This document shows positions 1,221 through 26,549 of a DNA stretch of 26,549 bases, piece after piece (the stretch's first letter is position 1; each line of letters begins with the position of its first letter). The notes beneath the pieces were generated by a model that was not told the origin of the DNA, ran no database searches, and worked only from the letters and a program-made list of their open reading frames with translations. The position numbers and the translations under genes are program-made. Source of the DNA: a virus; IMG/VR virus record IMGVR_UViG_3300027852_000154, positions 1-26,549 of that record; one strand, given 5' to 3'.

Positions 1221-2437
1221 TAGCTGAATACCTCCTCGATGTAGTCATTCACCAGGTGTGAACGGAACGTGATGTGCTCAGCCGGGTACGGCGGCGTGAA
1301 GTCAAAGTTGAAGTACACCTTGCCCTGGGTGATGTTGGCCGGGGTGTTCAGATCCGGATCCGCCCAGCACTCACCGCCCAAGATCGCGCCCAGGCTGGTC
1401 AAGGTGCGCAGGTAGGCGTTGACGCCTTCCACCACGTCTTCGACATAGGTTTTGGTGATGTTGCGGTCAACCGCCCACAGGTGTGCACGCTGCAGAGACT
1501 CATTAATAATGTCAGCCGTGCGGCGCACCGACAGAAACGCCCACTTGGGGTCACTGGCGAGTGTTCGGTTACCCCAGAGGCGATAGCCATCCTGGCGAAT
1601 GATGGTGGCCACGTTCTGTTCGTTCAACAGGTTGGCGCGGCTGTTCGCATCACCCAACTTGAAGTCCACCGGGCGTCCTGTGCCGATAATGCCGTTGATG
1701 TTCTGGTTGGATGGAGACCACCAGAAGCCCTTGTCGTTGTCGGTCTTGGCCAGCATGCCCGCTACACGGGCAGACGCCGGCTCGGTAACGATGTTGCCAT
1801 CGGCATCCAGCACTTTGACCCAAGGATCAACAACGAAAACACGAGGGCTGCCGAAGTCGCCCGAGTATGCAATGGCGTCAGCGTCCACGGTGTTGGGGCC
1901 ATCAGCAATGATCACCGCACGCAGGCGCTCAGCAATGCCGATGAGCTCAGAGACGACCGGGTTAGCCAGATAGGTTCCCGGTGTTCCAGGGTCTTCAGGT
2001 CGCTGATGGGTAAAGCCGGGGGCGCACAGAATGCGCGGGGCAAAGCCAACAACTGACTCGGCACCCAGCAGGGCCTGGACACCTTCAAAATCACCCGTAG
2101 TCGCATTCATGCCACCGATGACATTGGCCATGGTTTCGGTATCGTCTGCGCCCTCATCGACGCGCACGACAATAACCACAGCGCCGATCTGGTCCATAAT
2201 GCCATCAAGCGCGGCTTTCAGTGTGCCGCCGCCGGTGCCATCAACGGTCGCATCCAGCTTGGCCGCTTCGGCGCGGCTGCCTGCAATCAGAACCGGGGTG
2301 TTCAGGGGAAATGCATCAGCGTCAGCGCCAGGCGCAGTGCCGACAATACCAATGACGGATGACCGCACTGTGCGGATGGGGCGTGGTCCCGCATCAATCT
2401 CCGCGACTTCCACGCCATGCAAAAAGGTTTCTGCCAT
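1220..2437 (-). CDS. FI: Tail sheath protein (P2 gpFI-like)
   Basis: A 405-aa contractile sheath subunit, close to the P2 FI length of 396 aa. The N-terminus MAETFLHGVEVAEIDAGPRP and the early segment SSVIGIVGTAPGADADAFPLN are family hallmarks. So are the middle WWSPSNQNINGIIGTGRPVD and the C-terminal AEHITFRSHLVNDYIEEVFS, which carries the strand that links subunits. Start ATG at 2437 has a GAGGA site. Upstream are a perfect 14-bp palindrome (2450-2463) and one of the five late-promoter motifs (2511-2527), so sheath, tube, E and T probably form a late transcription unit. Confidence 0.96.
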   Translation of the reverse strand: MAETFLHGVEVAEIDAGPRPIRTVRSSVIGIVGTAPGADADAFPLNTPVLIAGSRAEAAKLDATVDGTGGGTLKAALDGIMDQIGAVVIVVRVDEGADDTETMANVIGGMNATTGDFEGVQALLGAESVVGFAPRILCAPGFTHQRPEDPGTPGTYLANPVVSELIGIAERLRAVIIADGPNTVDADAIAYSGDFGSPRVFVVDPWVKVLDADGNIVTEPASARVAGMLAKTDNDKGFWWSPSNQNINGIIGTGRPVDFKLGDANSRANLLNEQNVATIIRQDGYRLWGNRTLASDPKWAFLSVRRTADIINESLQRAHLWAVDRNITKTYVEDVVEGVNAYLRTLTSLGAILGGECWADPDLNTPANITQGKVYFNFDFTPPYPAEHITFRSHLVNDYIEEVFS

Positions 2438-14340: not shown

Positions 14341-16371
14341 TCACCAGCCATTGACCCAGCCCCCTTTGCGCTTGCCGGATTTGCGAGCGCGGCTGGATTG
14401 CCTTATGCGCTTAGTCTTGCGGACTGGCTTGGCTTGATCCTCTGGCGTAGTTTCCACGGCCAGTTTGGATTTCGTCTCAACTCGATTACTGGTCAGCACA
14501 TCACGCAGCTTGATGGCTGTTTCAGCCACCTGCTCTGACCAATCGTCATCAATGGCTGGATCGGTGTCATCCTCCACTACCAGCCGCTTTGCAAGCCGCG
14601 CCATGTTTGGGTTCAGGATCTTCAGGGCAGCGAGCGCGTACACACGGCAGTCAAAGGCCTCATTTCGGTCACGGGTCTTGTGCCACTCCCTGATCGGGAA
14701 GCCTTTGATGTACTTGGTGATCAGTTTCTCGGCGGTAATCTGGTGGAACCACTCGGCGTCACGCTCATCCGGAAAGTGGCAGTAACCCGGCCCCGGCGCT
14801 TTGATTGCCAGTCGCTTGGCCACGATCATCTTGGCTTCATCGGTACCGATGGTGAACAGGTCGACTGGACGCTGGCCACGGCCGGTACGCTTCCGGCTGG
14901 GTGCGCTAACGATCGGACGGCCCCAACCGCCCACGCCTTTGATGGCAAACAGACGGCGACCCGTCTTGCCCTTGGCGTATTCATAGGCTGCCTGTGTGTA
15001 ACCGCTGTTGCCGCCGGTATCCAGGCAGGCGGCGCTGATCGGCAGTTGAGCGCCAGACTGGTGCATCCACGTCTTTGCCAGGTAATCGTCCAGATCATCC
15101 CAGACATCGCCCTGCAGCGGATCCCCCCATAGCACTTGGTAATCGACGGACCATGACTCATCGCCCAGACCCCATGCCACGGTCTCGACTTCCAGTCGGT
15201 CCTGCTGCATGTCCACCCCGGAGGTCAGCACCAGCCCTCCCGCCGGTACCGGGGCGCGGTATTTCTCAGCGCGCTCAATCAGCCCGGTACTGTCGACCTG
15301 ATCGCCCCGCTCCTCCCACGTTTCAGCCAGACTGACGTTAACGAAGGTCTGCAGGTCGCCGGCAGCCTTCTTATCCAGGAACGACTGAACGATGTCGCCC
15401 AATCGGCGAAAGGTACTGTAAAGCTCGTTCAGGTGGTAGGAGGCGTGACCGCGGAACGGCTTGGCGGCTTTCCAGCCGGCGCCAATCTCCTCGGCGGTCC
15501 TGATCGCCGCGATGCGCTCGGCATCCGTCCAGCCTGGGGCACAGCCATTCACGCACATATAGCGCGCAGTCTCTGGCAGGTGGTTGCCCTCTTCATCCTG
15601 CTCCCACGTCACGTTCTGCCACTTGAGCGGCTGATGTTCACCGCAGTGCGGGCAGGCTACGTGAAACCGGCGCTGATCGCCCTGCTCGAAACTGGATTCG
15701 ATCCAGCTTGCCCCTTTCGTGGTAGGCGTGCTGATCTCCAACAACAAGCGCTGATCACCAAAGGTGGCCGCACGCTGCCACAGCAAGCCGACCGGATGGC
15801 CCTCGTTGGTACGGTCATAGCCGTCCGTTTCGTCGCAGACGATGAACGGAGCCGACCGACCTCGCATGGTCTTCGGACTGCCCGACCAGCTGAACATCAT
15901 GAAACCGCCTGGGTAGGACTTCATGCGCTGGTTGTTCACACCGTCACGGCCGCGCGGCTTGGCGATGAGCTCCTGCAGCTGGTCGTTGTTCTCCACCAGT
16001 GGGTTGAACTTGGTTTCCAGCCAAGTGGTCAGGTCGCCCTGACTGGGCTGCATCATGATCTGGCTACAGGGGTTCTGGGCAATGCGGTACGACTGGGCAC
16101 ACAGCGCCAGCATAGTTTTACCTACCTGAGCACCCCATTGCAGCGTGATCCGCTGGCAGCTGGGGTCCGCCGTCATATCAAGTGGCTCTCGCTGGTAGGG
16201 AGCGTTATCAAAGCGGATAAGACCGGGCACTGCGTTGCCGATCGGGATCTTGACGTTGGCTTCGGCCCAGCTGGAAGGCTTAAGGTCGGGCGGTGGCTTG
16301 AAGTGCACCTGAGCGGCACGCACCGCTTTGACCAGGCCGTTCAGGTTTCGGAACTGTAGCGCTGCCGTCAC
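14341..16371 (-). CDS. Terminase large subunit (lambda GpA family)
   Basis: A 676-aa packaging motor and nuclease (lambda A is 641 aa). ATPase: Walker A-like GAQVGKT at residues 80-86 and Walker B FIVCDE at 176-181. Zinc-ribbon-type cysteines at 240/243 (CPHC) and 273/277 (CVNGC). The nuclease domain begins with LTSGVDMQQDRLEVETVAWG (Asp387 as a likely metal ligand) and continues with AACLDTGGNSGYTQAAYEY. A basic C-terminal tail (KTKRIRQSSRARKSGKRKGG) probably contacts portal or DNA. Start GTG at 16371 overlaps the small-subunit stop (GTGA) with GAGGAAG upstream. GpA-type enzymes normally make staggered cuts at cos. Confidence 0.97.
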   Translation of the reverse strand: MTAALQFRNLNGLVKAVRAAQVHFKPPPDLKPSSWAEANVKIPIGNAVPGLIRFDNAPYQREPLDMTADPSCQRITLQWGAQVGKTMLALCAQSYRIAQNPCSQIMMQPSQGDLTTWLETKFNPLVENNDQLQELIAKPRGRDGVNNQRMKSYPGGFMMFSWSGSPKTMRGRSAPFIVCDETDGYDRTNEGHPVGLLWQRAATFGDQRLLLEISTPTTKGASWIESSFEQGDQRRFHVACPHCGEHQPLKWQNVTWEQDEEGNHLPETARYMCVNGCAPGWTDAERIAAIRTAEEIGAGWKAAKPFRGHASYHLNELYSTFRRLGDIVQSFLDKKAAGDLQTFVNVSLAETWEERGDQVDSTGLIERAEKYRAPVPAGGLVLTSGVDMQQDRLEVETVAWGLGDESWSVDYQVLWGDPLQGDVWDDLDDYLAKTWMHQSGAQLPISAACLDTGGNSGYTQAAYEYAKGKTGRRLFAIKGVGGWGRPIVSAPSRKRTGRGQRPVDLFTIGTDEAKMIVAKRLAIKAPGPGYCHFPDERDAEWFHQITAEKLITKYIKGFPIREWHKTRDRNEAFDCRVYALAALKILNPNMARLAKRLVVEDDTDPAIDDDWSEQVAETAIKLRDVLTSNRVETKSKLAVETTPEDQAKPVRKTKRIRQSSRARKSGKRKGGWVNGW
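14439..14455 (-). promoter_or_regulatory. Late-promoter activator site B (end of terminase large gene)
   Basis: CCTCTGGCGTAGTTTCC on plus, within the last 115 bp of the terminase coding region and about 105 bp before the gpW-like start. It encodes ETTPEDQ in the terminase frame. The sequence at the expected -10 distance is weak (AAGACT). As a promoter it would boost gpW-like, portal and protease-capsid expression. Called by match to the four other copies. Confidence 0.5.
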
Positions 16372-23203: not shown

Positions 23204-23240
23204 AAAAAAAACAGGCGCCAGCAGGAATACTGGAACCTGT
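23204..23240 (-). terminator. Intrinsic terminator just after the Cro-like gene
   Basis: On the minus strand an 11-bp stem with one wobble and one mismatch (ACAGGTTCCAG / CTGGCGCCTGT) has an 8-nt loop and is followed by eight T residues. It starts at the Cro-like stop codon. It corresponds to lambda tR1 and would limit early transcription past the first gene unless it is read through. Confidence 0.85.
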
Positions 23241-23464
23241 CAGGCGGCGACTAATTCGGGCCAGATAACACGCCAATCGTCAGGCCGCAGCTGCTTTCTG
23301 GTAACAGCTCCGCAGGTTTCTTTTTCGAGACGCGCGGCCAGCTCAGCAGATGCTGTCTTGTTTCCGTAGGCGATCTGGCGCAAGTACCCGCGAGTGGTTT
23401 TGGTGCGCTTCACCTGTTCATCGCTTGCTGTCTTGGCCCAGTCCAGCAGTGCTTTGTTCTTCAT
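23240..23464 (-). CDS. cro: Cro/YdaS-like regulator
   Basis: A 74-aa helix-turn-helix protein of the Cro/YdaS-like type: QVKRTKTTRGYLRQIAYGNKTASAELAARLEKETCGAVTRKQLRPDDWRVIWPEL. The ending RPDDW..IWPEL is the hallmark of this group. It is divergent from the CI-type repressor with a 109-bp shared control region and directly downstream of the leftward promoter. It should repress the repressor gene and tune early transcription. ATG at 23464 has only a weak site. Confidence 0.87.
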   Translation of the reverse strand: MKNKALLDWAKTASDEQVKRTKTTRGYLRQIAYGNKTASAELAARLEKETCGAVTRKQLRPDDWRVIWPELVAA

Positions 23465-23496: not shown

Positions 23497-23525
23497 AGTA
23501 TTACCCTTGGGTAATCATATTTCAA
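23497..23525 (-). promoter_or_regulatory. Early leftward promoter (PR-like)
   Basis: On the minus strand TTGAAA (23520-23525, 5/6 to -35) and AATACT (23497-23502, 4/6 to -10) are 17 nt apart. Operator 1 lies between and overlaps the -10, so repressor binding would block polymerase. It reads into the Cro-like gene about 30 bp downstream. A convincing promoter for the divergent repressor gene could not be found. Confidence 0.7.
23501..23514. promoter_or_regulatory. Operator 1 for repressor/Cro
   Basis: TTACCCTTGGGTAA, a palindrome with 6-bp half sites (TTACCC/GGGTAA), overlaps the spacer and -10 of the early promoter. It shares 12 of 14 positions with operator 2. Confidence 0.75.
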
Positions 23526-23539
23526 TACCTGCAGGACAT

Positions 23540-23553
23540 TTACCTTTGAGTAA
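23540..23553. promoter_or_regulatory. Operator 2 for repressor/Cro
   Basis: TTACCTTTGAGTAA, the second copy, centred 39 bp from operator 1 and 14 bp upstream of the -35 of the leftward promoter, 20 bp before the repressor ATG. A lone half site GGTAA (23559-23563) nearby may be part of a weaker third site. Confidence 0.72.
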
Positions 23554-23573: not shown

Positions 23574-24332
23574 ATGGAAACTCGAGAGATACGCCGGAAA
23601 AACCTCAAGGCATTAATGGACCACCTGTTTGGAGCAGAACGTGGGGCTCAACGCCGCATGGCAGAAACGATAGGTCGTCAGCCTGACTACATATCAAGAT
23701 GCCTATCTGACCCTTCCAAAAAGGGCGCAAAGGCAATTGGTGAGGACTTGGCGCGGGAGATAGAGAATGTATTTTCCCTACAGCGCTATTCTTTGGACTC
23801 TGTCGAGTTCTCACCGAGCACTGGCGGATCTACTGGTGACAATCGAAAGGAGCAAAACAAGGACAGCAACGTGATAGCCGCAGATTTCCAGAAAGGACGC
23901 CTCAAGGAAGGCGAAATCTCCATTCCCCAGTTTGATGTACGTGCGGCAATGGGCCCCGGTCAGGTCGCGCCTGATTACGTCGAGACAATCCGGCATCTGA
24001 CACTCCACCAGGGTTATTTATCCACACTAGGCGTGCGTTATACGCAGCCTGGCAATTTGGCGATCGTGACCGGTTACGGTCAAAGCATGGAAGGCACCAT
24101 CAACGACGGCGATCCGGTCATTATCGACCGCGGTGTACAGACGTTCATTGGCGATGGCGTGTACCTGCTCACCTGGAATGATTTGCTCTTCATCAAACGC
24201 CTGCAGATGGTGTCGGCCACAGAAGTCGAGCTGATCAGCGACAACCCAATGCATAAAGACAGGGTTGTGAGGTTGGATGAGCTCACCATCCACGCAAAGG
24301 TGTTATTGGCCTGGAACGCCAGAAAGCTTTAG
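23574..24332 (+). CDS. cI: CI-type repressor with S24 (LexA-like) protease domain
   Basis: A 252-aa lysogeny repressor. The N-terminal part (residues 5-70) is a helix-turn-helix with AQRRMAETIGRQPDYISRCLSD. The linker (80-115) is polar. The C-terminal S24 domain starts near IPQFDVRAAMGPGQ. It has catalytic Ser171 in GYGQSMEGTINDGD and Lys208 in LLFIKRL, so RecA-stimulated self-cleavage is expected and induction should be SOS-linked. ATG at 23574 has a weak site (TTGGGAC). It faces the Cro-like gene across two operators. An antirepressor gene in the early operon suggests a second way to lift repression. Confidence 0.94.
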   Translation: METREIRRKNLKALMDHLFGAERGAQRRMAETIGRQPDYISRCLSDPSKKGAKAIGEDLAREIENVFSLQRYSLDSVEFSPSTGGSTGDNRKEQNKDSNVIAADFQKGRLKEGEISIPQFDVRAAMGPGQVAPDYVETIRHLTLHQGYLSTLGVRYTQPGNLAIVTGYGQSMEGTINDGDPVIIDRGVQTFIGDGVYLLTWNDLLFIKRLQMVSATEVELISDNPMHKDRVVRLDELTIHAKVLLAWNARKL

Positions 24333-24363: not shown

Positions 24364-25242
24364 ATGTCGATCCATTTACTGCCCTCCGATAAATTTGTTG
24401 GGCAGATTGCACCACCAAAGAAAACGGGGATTAGCGCTTTATTCAGAGCAAAGATTGAATTAAACGACTCACCTGAGTGCTGCTTCGTTAAACCGTTGCC
24501 AGACCTTATATACTGCCCCGTTGCACAATCTCCGGTTCCTAACCGCGAGGCAACAGCTGAAGCGATTGGATACGCGCTGGCAAAACGATCAGGCTTTGAG
24601 GTGCCCGCCGAGGCCGGCATCATCCTGCTAACGCTTGAGCAAATTCCTCAGGAACTACATGCCAAGCTTATAGAAGGCGGTGGCGAGTTACAGCAAGACT
24701 ACCTGTGCTGGTTCAGTAAGGATATGGCGTATCCTAATATCATTCAGCACATCAACCTCGACGACCTCCCCTGCGATACTGTTGCTCAGGCGTTAAGGCG
24801 GGTTGTCGAGGAATTGGCACAAAAGCCCGAAACATGCAGGATTGTTGCTTTCGATGACTGGCTTGCCAACTCTGACAGAAACCTAGGCAATCTCCTTGCC
24901 GCACCTGTTAATCCCATGCTTATCGACCACGGAAGGATATTTTTCTACCCCAACTGGTCACCGGGTCAGCTTGGCTTTCCAGAGCCAGCCAATGCAAACC
25001 TGCTACTTAATGCACTGGAGTCCGTCTCGCCAGGTTGGAGTGACAAGCTTCCAAACAAAAGCGCGCGGGCAATGGCTTATGCTTCATTCATCAAAATCAT
25101 GCGTGCCGATGAGTGCAAGAAGGAGCTATCAGCTTTCCTCGCTGAGTTTTTCGACCAGTCTCAAATCAATGCTATCATCCAGCTTCTGGAAAGCAGGCTA
25201 GATACTGACAACTACAACCAGAAGATAGGACTTATTGCATGA
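24364..25242 (+). CDS. HipA-like (HipA_2) kinase family protein
   Basis: A 292-aa protein starting at ATG 24364 with AAGGAG 7 nt upstream; the longer open frame into the repressor is unsupported. Kinase-like features: ATP-binding Lys (CCFVKPLP, Lys43), Glu62 in NREATAEAIGYALAKRSGFEVP, catalytic loop DDWLANSDRNLGNLL (Asp171, Asn176) and metal-binding LIDHG (Asp188). This is the HipA/PI3K-like pattern. The protein is smaller than HipA (440 aa) and lacks its N-terminal subdomain, like the HipA_2 family. It lies 31 bp behind the repressor with no clear promoter between, so it is probably expressed in the lysogen. Substrate unknown; HipA phosphorylates Glu-tRNA synthetase. No HipB-type partner is next to it apart from the repressor itself. 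Confidence 0.8.
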   Translation: MSIHLLPSDKFVGQIAPPKKTGISALFRAKIELNDSPECCFVKPLPDLIYCPVAQSPVPNREATAEAIGYALAKRSGFEVPAEAGIILLTLEQIPQELHAKLIEGGGELQQDYLCWFSKDMAYPNIIQHINLDDLPCDTVAQALRRVVEELAQKPETCRIVAFDDWLANSDRNLGNLLAAPVNPMLIDHGRIFFYPNWSPGQLGFPEPANANLLLNALESVSPGWSDKLPNKSARAMAYASFIKIMRADECKKELSAFLAEFFDQSQINAIIQLLESRLDTDNYNQKIGLIA

Positions 25243-26114
25243 ACAGCAGCCTCAGAGGGAAGCTTCGCAAGGAAGGAGGCCAGAGCCCTGTTTCAGGTCG
25301 CTGGCAGAGCATCCAGCTGTGCATCGATGAAGACACCCGCGAATTCTTCAATGTAGGTGTTGTGTTCAGCAATGAGAATGTCATCGAGGTACGCATGTTG
25401 GACGCATACGATCGCCTCAATTGCCTGTTTGATACTCGCATCGACAAAAACTCACTATCTCACACCCTTCACGACATTGAGTCAGCCATCATCGAACTGA
25501 AGGGTAATCTCCCAGATACCCTAGGCCACAATATCAAGCTTGGGGTTCCTCTATACGCAGCGGGCCGGTCTCCAGAAGAAATCGTTGATGAGTTCTTCAA
25601 CCATGTTGTGACATTGGCAAAGCCCAAAAATAGCAAGGATAGTCAGCGCTTCCGTTATCGTGCCACGGGCAAGGTGAGGAGCACCGTTATGGACCTCATG
25701 CGCGAATCATTTCCGCTCGAGGCTGATAGAATTATCCAGAAAGAGCGTTACGTTCTCAGGCTTAAATCAGGTGGCAAGCTGGATCTTGATATCCCTTTGA
25801 TCAACGACACGGCCTCCGGTGCCATTGTCTCAGCTTGGTACAAAGATACGCTAAAGGTGGAGAACAGTTTGCTAAGGGCTTCGGCTGATCTCAACTTGAT
25901 CAGGAGCAACACCGACCGCAAACAAGCAGCTGTTTCCGTGCTGATTCCCGACACCAAAAGCGGTCTATCACAGACTGAATTCAACAAGCTGCACACAGTC
26001 ACCATGAGGCAGCTGGATAGAATCCGGGCAACCGGCGTAGAAGTAATCGAGGCCATCACAACGCAAGAGCTTGCCGCTCAAACCTCAAACTGGTGGATGC
26101 AGCGCGCCAGCTAA
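25239..26114 (+). CDS. DUF3037-like partner of the HipA-like kinase
   Basis: A 291-aa protein whose ATG overlaps the kinase stop (ATGA), so the two are co-translated. Residues 22-70 (WQSIQLCIDEDTREFFNVGVVFSNENVIEVRMLD) resemble DUF3037, with its 'E..NvGVv' motif; DUF3037 genes commonly sit beside HipA_2 kinases. The remainder, about residues 95-290, is alpha/beta and not recognised; it is longer than typical DUF3037 proteins (about 120 aa). It has no catalytic motif, signal peptide or membrane segment. It could regulate, guide or neutralise the kinase; this is inference. Confidence 0.68.
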   Translation: MNSSLRGKLRKEGGQSPVSGRWQSIQLCIDEDTREFFNVGVVFSNENVIEVRMLDAYDRLNCLFDTRIDKNSLSHTLHDIESAIIELKGNLPDTLGHNIKLGVPLYAAGRSPEEIVDEFFNHVVTLAKPKNSKDSQRFRYRATGKVRSTVMDLMRESFPLEADRIIQKERYVLRLKSGGKLDLDIPLINDTASGAIVSAWYKDTLKVENSLLRASADLNLIRSNTDRKQAAVSVLIPDTKSGLSQTEFNKLHTVTMRQLDRIRATGVEVIEAITTQELAAQTSNWWMQRAS

Positions 26115-26198: not shown

Positions 26199-26549
26199 AT
26201 GGAACGCATCAAAAAGATCTTCGCTTATACAGCCATGGCGCTATCTATAGCCTTTGTCACCTATCTAGTTGTCGATGAAGACACACCTGCACAGCCTGTC
26301 GCAGAGCAAGCAGCGCCAGCATTCCAGCCCACACCCGAGATGCTGGCCGCAGTCGATCCCGGTGAAGGATTCAGGGAAGATGGCTGGATCTTCGAGATCG
26401 GCGAGTTCACTGAACGCGGTGTCGATGTCCGTGCGTACTGGCCGGCAGGACAGCAGGCAACGCAACCAATGGTACAAATGATGGGTGAGGCTCTTGTTGT
26501 CGATACGGTTACCAGACTCAGGAAAGCTGGCTTTGATGCAAAGGAGCGC
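26199..26549 (+). CDS. Exported or membrane-anchored unknown protein, C-terminus cut off
   Basis: The first 117 codons of a protein running off the right edge. ATG at 26199 has a strong AAGGAG site. The N-terminus MERIKKIFAYTAMALSIAFV has a Lys/Arg start and a hydrophobic stretch to about residue 25, a signal peptide or anchor. A Pro/Ala/Gln linker follows (DEDTPAQPVAEQAAPAFQPT), then a folded-looking part (GWIFEIGEFTERGVDVRAYWP). It is separated from the DUF3037-like gene by 84 bp without a visible terminator, so it may belong to the same operon. Not recognised. Confidence 0.68.
   Translation, partial: MERIKKIFAYTAMALSIAFVTYLVVDEDTPAQPVAEQAAPAFQPTPEMLAAVDPGEGFREDGWIFEIGEFTERGVDVRAYWPAGQQATQPMVQMMGEALVVDTVTRLRKAGFDAKER

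What the first reader, a model, noticed from the sequence alone, without database searches (positions are those of the whole stretch)
24364..26114. HipA-like kinase and DUF3037-like pair behind the prophage repressor
A compact kinase with intact catalytic residues and a 291-aa DUF3037-like partner overlap by 4 bp and probably share the repressor's transcript in the lysogen. HipA-type kinases act as growth-arresting toxins. A prophage that expresses one next to its repressor may use it for superinfection exclusion, lysogen stability or persistence. The partner is longer than usual DUF3037 proteins, so its C-terminal about 200 residues may be a new domain. No HipB is present, so the DUF3037-like protein or the repressor may act as the control.
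Basis: partly seen in the sequence, partly recalled or inferred. Interest (0 to 1): 0.75.

Follow-up and report, generated by a model that had tools for sequence, protein, structure and literature searches.

The report
HipA kinase–DUF3037 pair behind prophage repressor
A bacterial virus hidden in its host's genome carries, just behind its own off-switch gene, a kinase toxin and its likely antidote that belong to an already known anti-virus defence family, so it probably protects the host cell from other viruses.

Summary
A 292-aa kinase gene (24364-25242) and a 291-aa DUF3037 gene (25239-26114) overlap by ATGA and start 31 bp behind an S24-type phage repressor (23574-24332), with a clear ribosome-binding site and no terminator between. 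The kinase model is confident (pLDDT 93.9) and matches CtkA, PI4KII and HipA structures; K43, E66, D171, N176 and D188 are invariant in 56 relatives. The pair is not new in kind. It is a divergent member of the HipA_2-DUF3037 two-gene systems (PADLOC PDC-M66; DS-6, renamed HipAD). Published work shows phage defence that needs the kinase, and toxicity when the DUF3037 gene is deleted. So the DUF3037 protein, not the repressor, is the likely antitoxin. Its length is normal for the family, so the C-terminal part is the family's usual unnamed half. What is added here: the pair sits behind an HTH or S24 repressor in about half of the non-redundant viral relatives; the repressor type is exchanged while the pair stays; the closest relative (68%/73%) stands alone in a chromosomal defence-like neighbourhood; another defence-associated gene occupies the same slot in a related Pseudomonas locus. 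Best reading: a rexAB-like lysogenic defence cassette acting by abortive infection.

The parts
24364..25242 (+). HipA_2-type protein kinase, 292 aa, presumed toxin/effector; K43, E66, D164, D171, R172, N176, D188 invariant in 56 relatives
   Evidence: ORF; HipA_2 E 0.0019, below cut-off; AlphaFold2 pLDDT 93.9, Foldseek to CtkA, PI4KII, HipA; profile-profile match to canonical HipA_2 E 1.6e-15; residues
25239..26114 (+). DUF3037 protein, 291 aa, presumed antitoxin/sensor; N-terminal DUF3037 (about 20-128), C-terminal alpha/beta domain (about 143-290)
   Evidence: PF11236 23.4 bits, cut-off 22.6; PDC-M66B E 5.9e-6; AlphaFold2 pLDDT 85; nearly full-length profile-profile match to canonical partners E 4.7e-10
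23574..24332 (+). CI-type repressor with S24 domain (252 aa), promoter-proximal gene of the presumed lysogenic operon
   Evidence: Peptidase_S24 E 1.2e-18; PHROG 4 transcriptional repressor E 3e-30
23501..23514 (+). operator-like palindrome TTACCCTTGGGTAA in front of the repressor
   Evidence: 3 matches against 0.19 expected
23540..23553 (+). second operator-like site TTACCTTTGAGTAA
24351..24356 (+). ribosome-binding site AAGGAG, 7 bases before the kinase ATG
   Evidence: sequence
23240..23464 (-). small divergent ORF (74 aa) in the Cro position; not part of the pair
   Evidence: ORF and position only; inference

Best explanation
The pair is a prophage-borne, divergent HipAD/PDC-M66 toxin-antitoxin defence cassette placed like lambda rexAB, directly behind the repressor gene, so that the lysogen makes it together with the repressor. 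The DUF3037 protein binds and silences the HipA-type kinase. Infection by another phage disturbs the complex, by a trigger not known here. The freed kinase phosphorylates a host target and stops growth before the intruder multiplies, which protects the neighbouring lysogens and the prophage. Shown by computation: the two genes, the kinase fold, the intact catalytic site, purifying selection, near-constant pairing, the recurrent place behind repressors. Shown by others for relatives: kinase-dependent defence and toxicity on loss of the partner. Inferred: co-transcription, complex formation, trigger, target, abortive infection in this host.
For: Partner matches DUF3037 and PDC-M66B, and both proteins match canonical HipA_2/DUF3037 pairs by profile. 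61 of 64 non-redundant kinase loci have a partner hit in the same locus, nearly all directly adjacent, 30 with the same 4-bp overlap. Kinase fold and invariant catalytic residues. Constraint on both proteins. Defence-like context: closest relative L008 beside HEPN-RES, a PDC-S11-like protein and NOV_C; kinases directly behind brxL (L029, L032); the pair is the main cargo of 3.5-4 kb enterobacterial plasmids. Repressor-linked place in Pseudomonas, Moraxella and Acinetobacter phages. Literature: kinase deletion abolishes defence against Bas51 and DUF3037 deletion is toxic (PMC12548924); a catalytic mutation in DS-6A abolishes defence and DS-6A/DS-6B are predicted to bind (PMC13092281).
Against: The window kinase is below the HipA_2 cut-off and does not match PDC-M66A; canonical members of the family are distant relatives (13-21% identity in the profile alignments), so function is carried over a long way. 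No expression or phenotype data. The complex could not be modelled. Trigger and target are unknown.
Confidence: 0.75

Rival explanations
1. The pair is a functional part of the lysogeny switch: the kinase or the DUF3037 protein acts on the repressor (phosphorylation, binding) and tunes induction, or the repressor gates the kinase.
For: Position directly behind the repressor in many lineages. In the window's own subclade most repressors carry a shared C-terminal module with a charged tail that overlaps the kinase start by about 23 bp; all 13 module hits in viral contigs have the pair next door.
Against: The repressor type is exchanged within the subclade (L097 S24 against L105 module, sister kinases); the window has an S24 repressor without the module; L008 has no repressor; many relatives sit elsewhere, on plasmids, behind brxL, near lysis or tail genes. 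The core of the module also occurs in Pseudomonas regulators without the pair (17 of 24 hits, one of them with the full tail).
Confidence: 0.12
2. A stabilisation or persistence toxin-antitoxin module without a specific anti-phage role: loss of the prophage frees the stable kinase and kills or arrests cured cells.
For: Kinase toxin plus neutraliser architecture; carriage on very small plasmids fits addiction; HipA homologues cause persistence (general knowledge).
Against: Homologous pairs were found by defence screens and defend against phage (PMC12548924, PMC13092281); association with BREX and other defence-like genes.
Confidence: 0.1
3. The genes are passenger remnants with no present function.
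For: Lower GC (0.49-0.51) than the rest of the contig (0.58), as for recently gained cargo.
Against: Both ORFs intact, catalytic residues kept, synonymous differences 3.5-5 times the non-synonymous ones per site.
Confidence: 0.02

Closest known systems
HipAD / DS-6 (Laub laboratory; PMC13092281, Brenes and Laub 2025 cited there)
   Same: Two genes, HipA-family kinase plus DUF3037 protein, no HipB; found in E. coli prophages according to the cited title; kinase site needed for defence
   Different: Window proteins are divergent (below the HipA_2 cut-off; kinase about 50 aa longer than canonical ones); no DUF1829 match in 52 relatives; place behind the repressor is not reported in the passages read
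PADLOC candidate PDC-M66 and the Retron-Sda1 pair (PMC12548924)
   Same: Same two families; DUF3037 deletion toxic, kinase needed for defence, retron parts not needed
   Different: Sda1 pair lies within a retron operon; window pair lies in a phage immunity operon; PDC-M66A does not match the window kinase
Pseudomonas phage vB_PaeS-D14P and P. aeruginosa prophage genes (PHROG 11186 and 14695 are the matching phage families, function unknown)
   Same: Closest phage homologues (50%), same order repressor-kinase-DUF3037
   Different: Repressor is HTH plus C-terminal module, without S24 domain
Lambda rexAB and RexABpp of Pseudomonas putida (PMC12894663)
   Same: Two-gene exclusion cassette behind the CI-type repressor
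   Different: Unrelated proteins; analogy of place and purpose only
HipAB
   Same: HipA-family kinase fold and catalytic residues
   Different: No HipB; kinase 292 aa against about 440; partner is DUF3037

Membership tests
HipA_2-DUF3037 pair (PDC-M66 / HipAD / DS-6) | HipA-like kinase gene directly followed by a DUF3037 gene | tested here: met
   61 of 64 relatives likewise
HipA_2-DUF3037 pair (PDC-M66 / HipAD / DS-6) | Kinase reaches the HipA_2 or PDC-M66A model | tested here: inconclusive
   HipA_2 E 0.0019, 17.9 bits against cut-off 27; no PDC-M66A match for the window kinase, weak for siblings; profile-profile to canonical HipA_2 E 1.6e-15
HipA_2-DUF3037 pair (PDC-M66 / HipAD / DS-6) | Partner reaches the DUF3037 and PDC-M66B models, with family-like length and two-domain build | tested here: met
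   23.4 bits against 22.6; PDC-M66B E 5.9e-6; 236 aligned columns, E 4.7e-10; canonical lengths 273-287 aa
HipA_2-DUF3037 pair (PDC-M66 / HipAD / DS-6) | DUF1829 in the partner, as reported for DS-6B | tested here: not met
   DUF1829 is not among the families matched by the 52 relatives; the four canonical Enterobacterales partners tested do not match it either, so it does not define the family
HipA_2-DUF3037 pair (PDC-M66 / HipAD / DS-6) | Intact kinase active site | tested here: met
   K43, E66, D171, N176, D188 invariant in 56 sequences; kinase fold
HipA_2-DUF3037 pair (PDC-M66 / HipAD / DS-6) | Kinase toxic, neutralised by the DUF3037 protein; phage defence | not testable with these tools
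   shown for relatives only (PMC12548924, PMC13092281)
HipAB | HipB-type HTH antitoxin and full-length HipA with N-terminal subdomain | tested here: not met
   only HipA_2 reported for the kinase, no N-terminal HipA family; kinase 292 aa; adjacent upstream gene is an S24 repressor
RexAB | Homology to RexA/RexB | tested here: not met
   no such Pfam, PHROG or NCBIfam match; positional analogy only

The most novel reading that the evidence does not exclude
The cassette is wired to prophage immunity: in this subclade the repressor, through its C-terminal module or by its level, takes part in holding the kinase-DUF3037 complex off, so that loss of immunity or attack on the repressor by another phage (for example by an antirepressor) fires the kinase. 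The pair would then guard the repressor.
Probability: 0.08. Interest if true: 0.75.

Novelty: new member of a known kind. Interest (0 to 1): 0.36.

Why it matters
It extends the HipAD/PDC-M66 defence family to a divergent clade that current kinase models miss, and shows that this family repeatedly occupies the rexAB-like slot behind prophage repressors in several proteobacterial lineages. That makes the slot a practical place to look for lysogen-encoded defence: another defence-associated family (GmrSD_N/DUF262) already turns up behind the same repressor type. It also yields a clean test of whether HipAD-type systems need or sense prophage immunity.

Tried and rejected
A new C-terminal domain unique to this partner: rejected, canonical partners align along nearly the whole length. 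C-terminal fold by Foldseek: only weak resemblance to PD-(D/E)XK/XPF-type nuclease folds (Can2, Hef, FANCM; no E below 0.001, TM to query at most 0.3); the best conserved residues (S198, D217, P237) are not a nuclease motif, so no nuclease claim is made. The repressor C-terminal module as a strict third component: the first searches looked exclusive, but a profile search of 349 Pseudomonadaceae genomes found its core without the pair in most hits, so only linkage of the module-plus-tail form is kept. First viral scan with the single kinase found nothing; the alignment query solved it. Two module scans failed or found nothing. Brenes and Laub 2025 is not in the library. The window is itself a 26,549-bp virus record, so no host genome could be examined.

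Full report
Observation. The repressor gene ends at 24332. The 31-bp gap holds AAGGAG seven bases before the kinase ATG, and the pattern scan found no plus-strand terminator between cI and the kinase. The repressor has an S24 domain and sits beside two operator-like sites. The window is a complete virus record of 26,549 bp. Its DNA has short stretches similar to Vibrio phage VHML/MAR tail sheath and ECOO78 terminase, so it is probably a fragment of a sheath-bearing temperate phage.

Identity. The kinase hits HipA_2 weakly (E 0.0019) and the partner hits DUF3037 just over the curated cut-off. PADLOC recognises the partner as PDC-M66B. PHROGs put them in families 11186 and 14695 of unknown function. 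Profiles built from more than 50 relatives match the canonical Enterobacterales HipA_2 and DUF3037 pairs with E 1.6e-15 for the kinase and 4.7e-10 for the partner, the latter over 236 columns. So the window pair belongs to the same superfamily as PDC-M66/HipAD but to a divergent clade. Canonical partners are 273-287 aa, so the window partner is not longer than usual.

Structure. The kinase model is very confident (pLDDT 93.9, pTM 0.92) and its best solved neighbours are CtkA, PI4KII and HipA. K43, E66, D164, D171, R172, N176 and D188 are invariant in 56 sequences. The partner model shows two domains with good local confidence (pLDDT 85, pTM 0.53). Its solved-structure matches are weak.

Relatives and setting. 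Scans of phages, plasmids, viral contigs and genomes gave 64 non-redundant kinases; 61 have a partner hit in the same locus, nearly all adjacent, 30 with the same 4-bp overlap. Upstream genes were typed by Pfam and by profile: S24 repressors in nine representatives, HTH repressors with a shared C-terminal module in eleven (the module is weak in two distant ones), other HTH proteins in three. Pseudomonas phage D14P, Moraxella phages Mcat18/22 and an Acinetobacter locus show the order repressor-kinase-DUF3037. Other copies lie behind lysis or tail genes, directly behind brxL, or on 3.5-4 kb plasmids. The closest relative (kinase 68%, partner 73%) is in a Marinobacterium profundum contig with HEPN-RES, a PDC-S11-like protein and NOV_C, and no repressor beside it. 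The kinase tree joins the window to this copy and places both inside the repressor-linked subclade; within that subclade S24 and module repressors alternate, so the pair is kept while the repressor is exchanged.

The module. In Pseudomonadaceae, seven of the eight best module hits carry the pair directly behind; one (L145) carries a GmrSD_N (DUF262) gene there instead. GmrSD-type proteins are known in phage defence (general knowledge), so the slot looks like an exchangeable defence site. Sixteen weaker hits are regulators without the pair, so the core of the module is not exclusive.

Function. Two studies tested relatives. In the Retron-Sda1 operon the HipA-like kinase is needed for defence against Bas51, the retron RT and ncRNA are not, and deletion of the DUF3037 gene is toxic (PMC12548924). 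In DS-6/HipAD a catalytic mutation of the kinase abolishes defence and the two proteins are predicted to bind each other and DNA (PMC13092281). With the intact active site and purifying selection here, the best model is a kinase toxin held by its DUF3037 antitoxin, made in the lysogen with the repressor as lambda rexAB is, and released during infection by another phage. RexABpp of P. putida shows that prophage defence pairs in this place are active (PMC12894663). Trigger and target are unknown, and co-expression is inferred from spacing only.

Verdict. New points are the divergent clade, its repeated rexAB-like place, and the exchange of repressors in front of a constant pair. Interest moderate to low.

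Noticed in passing
L040, L104, L105, L089, L090, L094, L095, L009, L010 (gene upstream of the kinase): HTH repressors with very different N-terminal halves share a C-terminal module (PRSR..L..I..AA..GRL...D..LL..IA.R) plus a charged tail (RLR.KL..DD) whose codons overlap the kinase start by about 23 bp in most; the S24 domain is missing.
   Followed up: partly
L145:150-1253 (G329:C17:21770-22177): Behind a module-type repressor lies a GmrSD_N (DUF262) gene instead of the HipA_2-DUF3037 pair, suggesting an exchangeable defence slot.
   Followed up: partly
L008:911-4114: The closest relative's neighbours are HEPN-RES, a DUF4268/PDC-S11-like protein and a NOV_C protein: a possible defence island in Marinobacterium profundum.
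   Followed up: partly
L004 (NZ_AP022141.1) and other 3.5-4 kb enterobacterial plasmids: Small plasmids (one typed ColRNAI) carry a HipA_2-DUF3037 pair as nearly their only cargo.
   Followed up: partly
L029 and L032: HipA_2-DUF3037 pairs 40 bp behind brxL, probably inside BREX loci.
   Followed up: partly
window 26199-26549: ORF of at least 117 aa with an N-terminal hydrophobic segment, cut by the contig end; no Pfam, PHROG or NCBIfam match.
   Followed up: no
window 1238-1552 and 14909-15483: Short similarity to tail sheath of Vibrio phages VHML/MAR and to ECOO78 large terminase: a sheath-bearing temperate phage.
   Followed up: no
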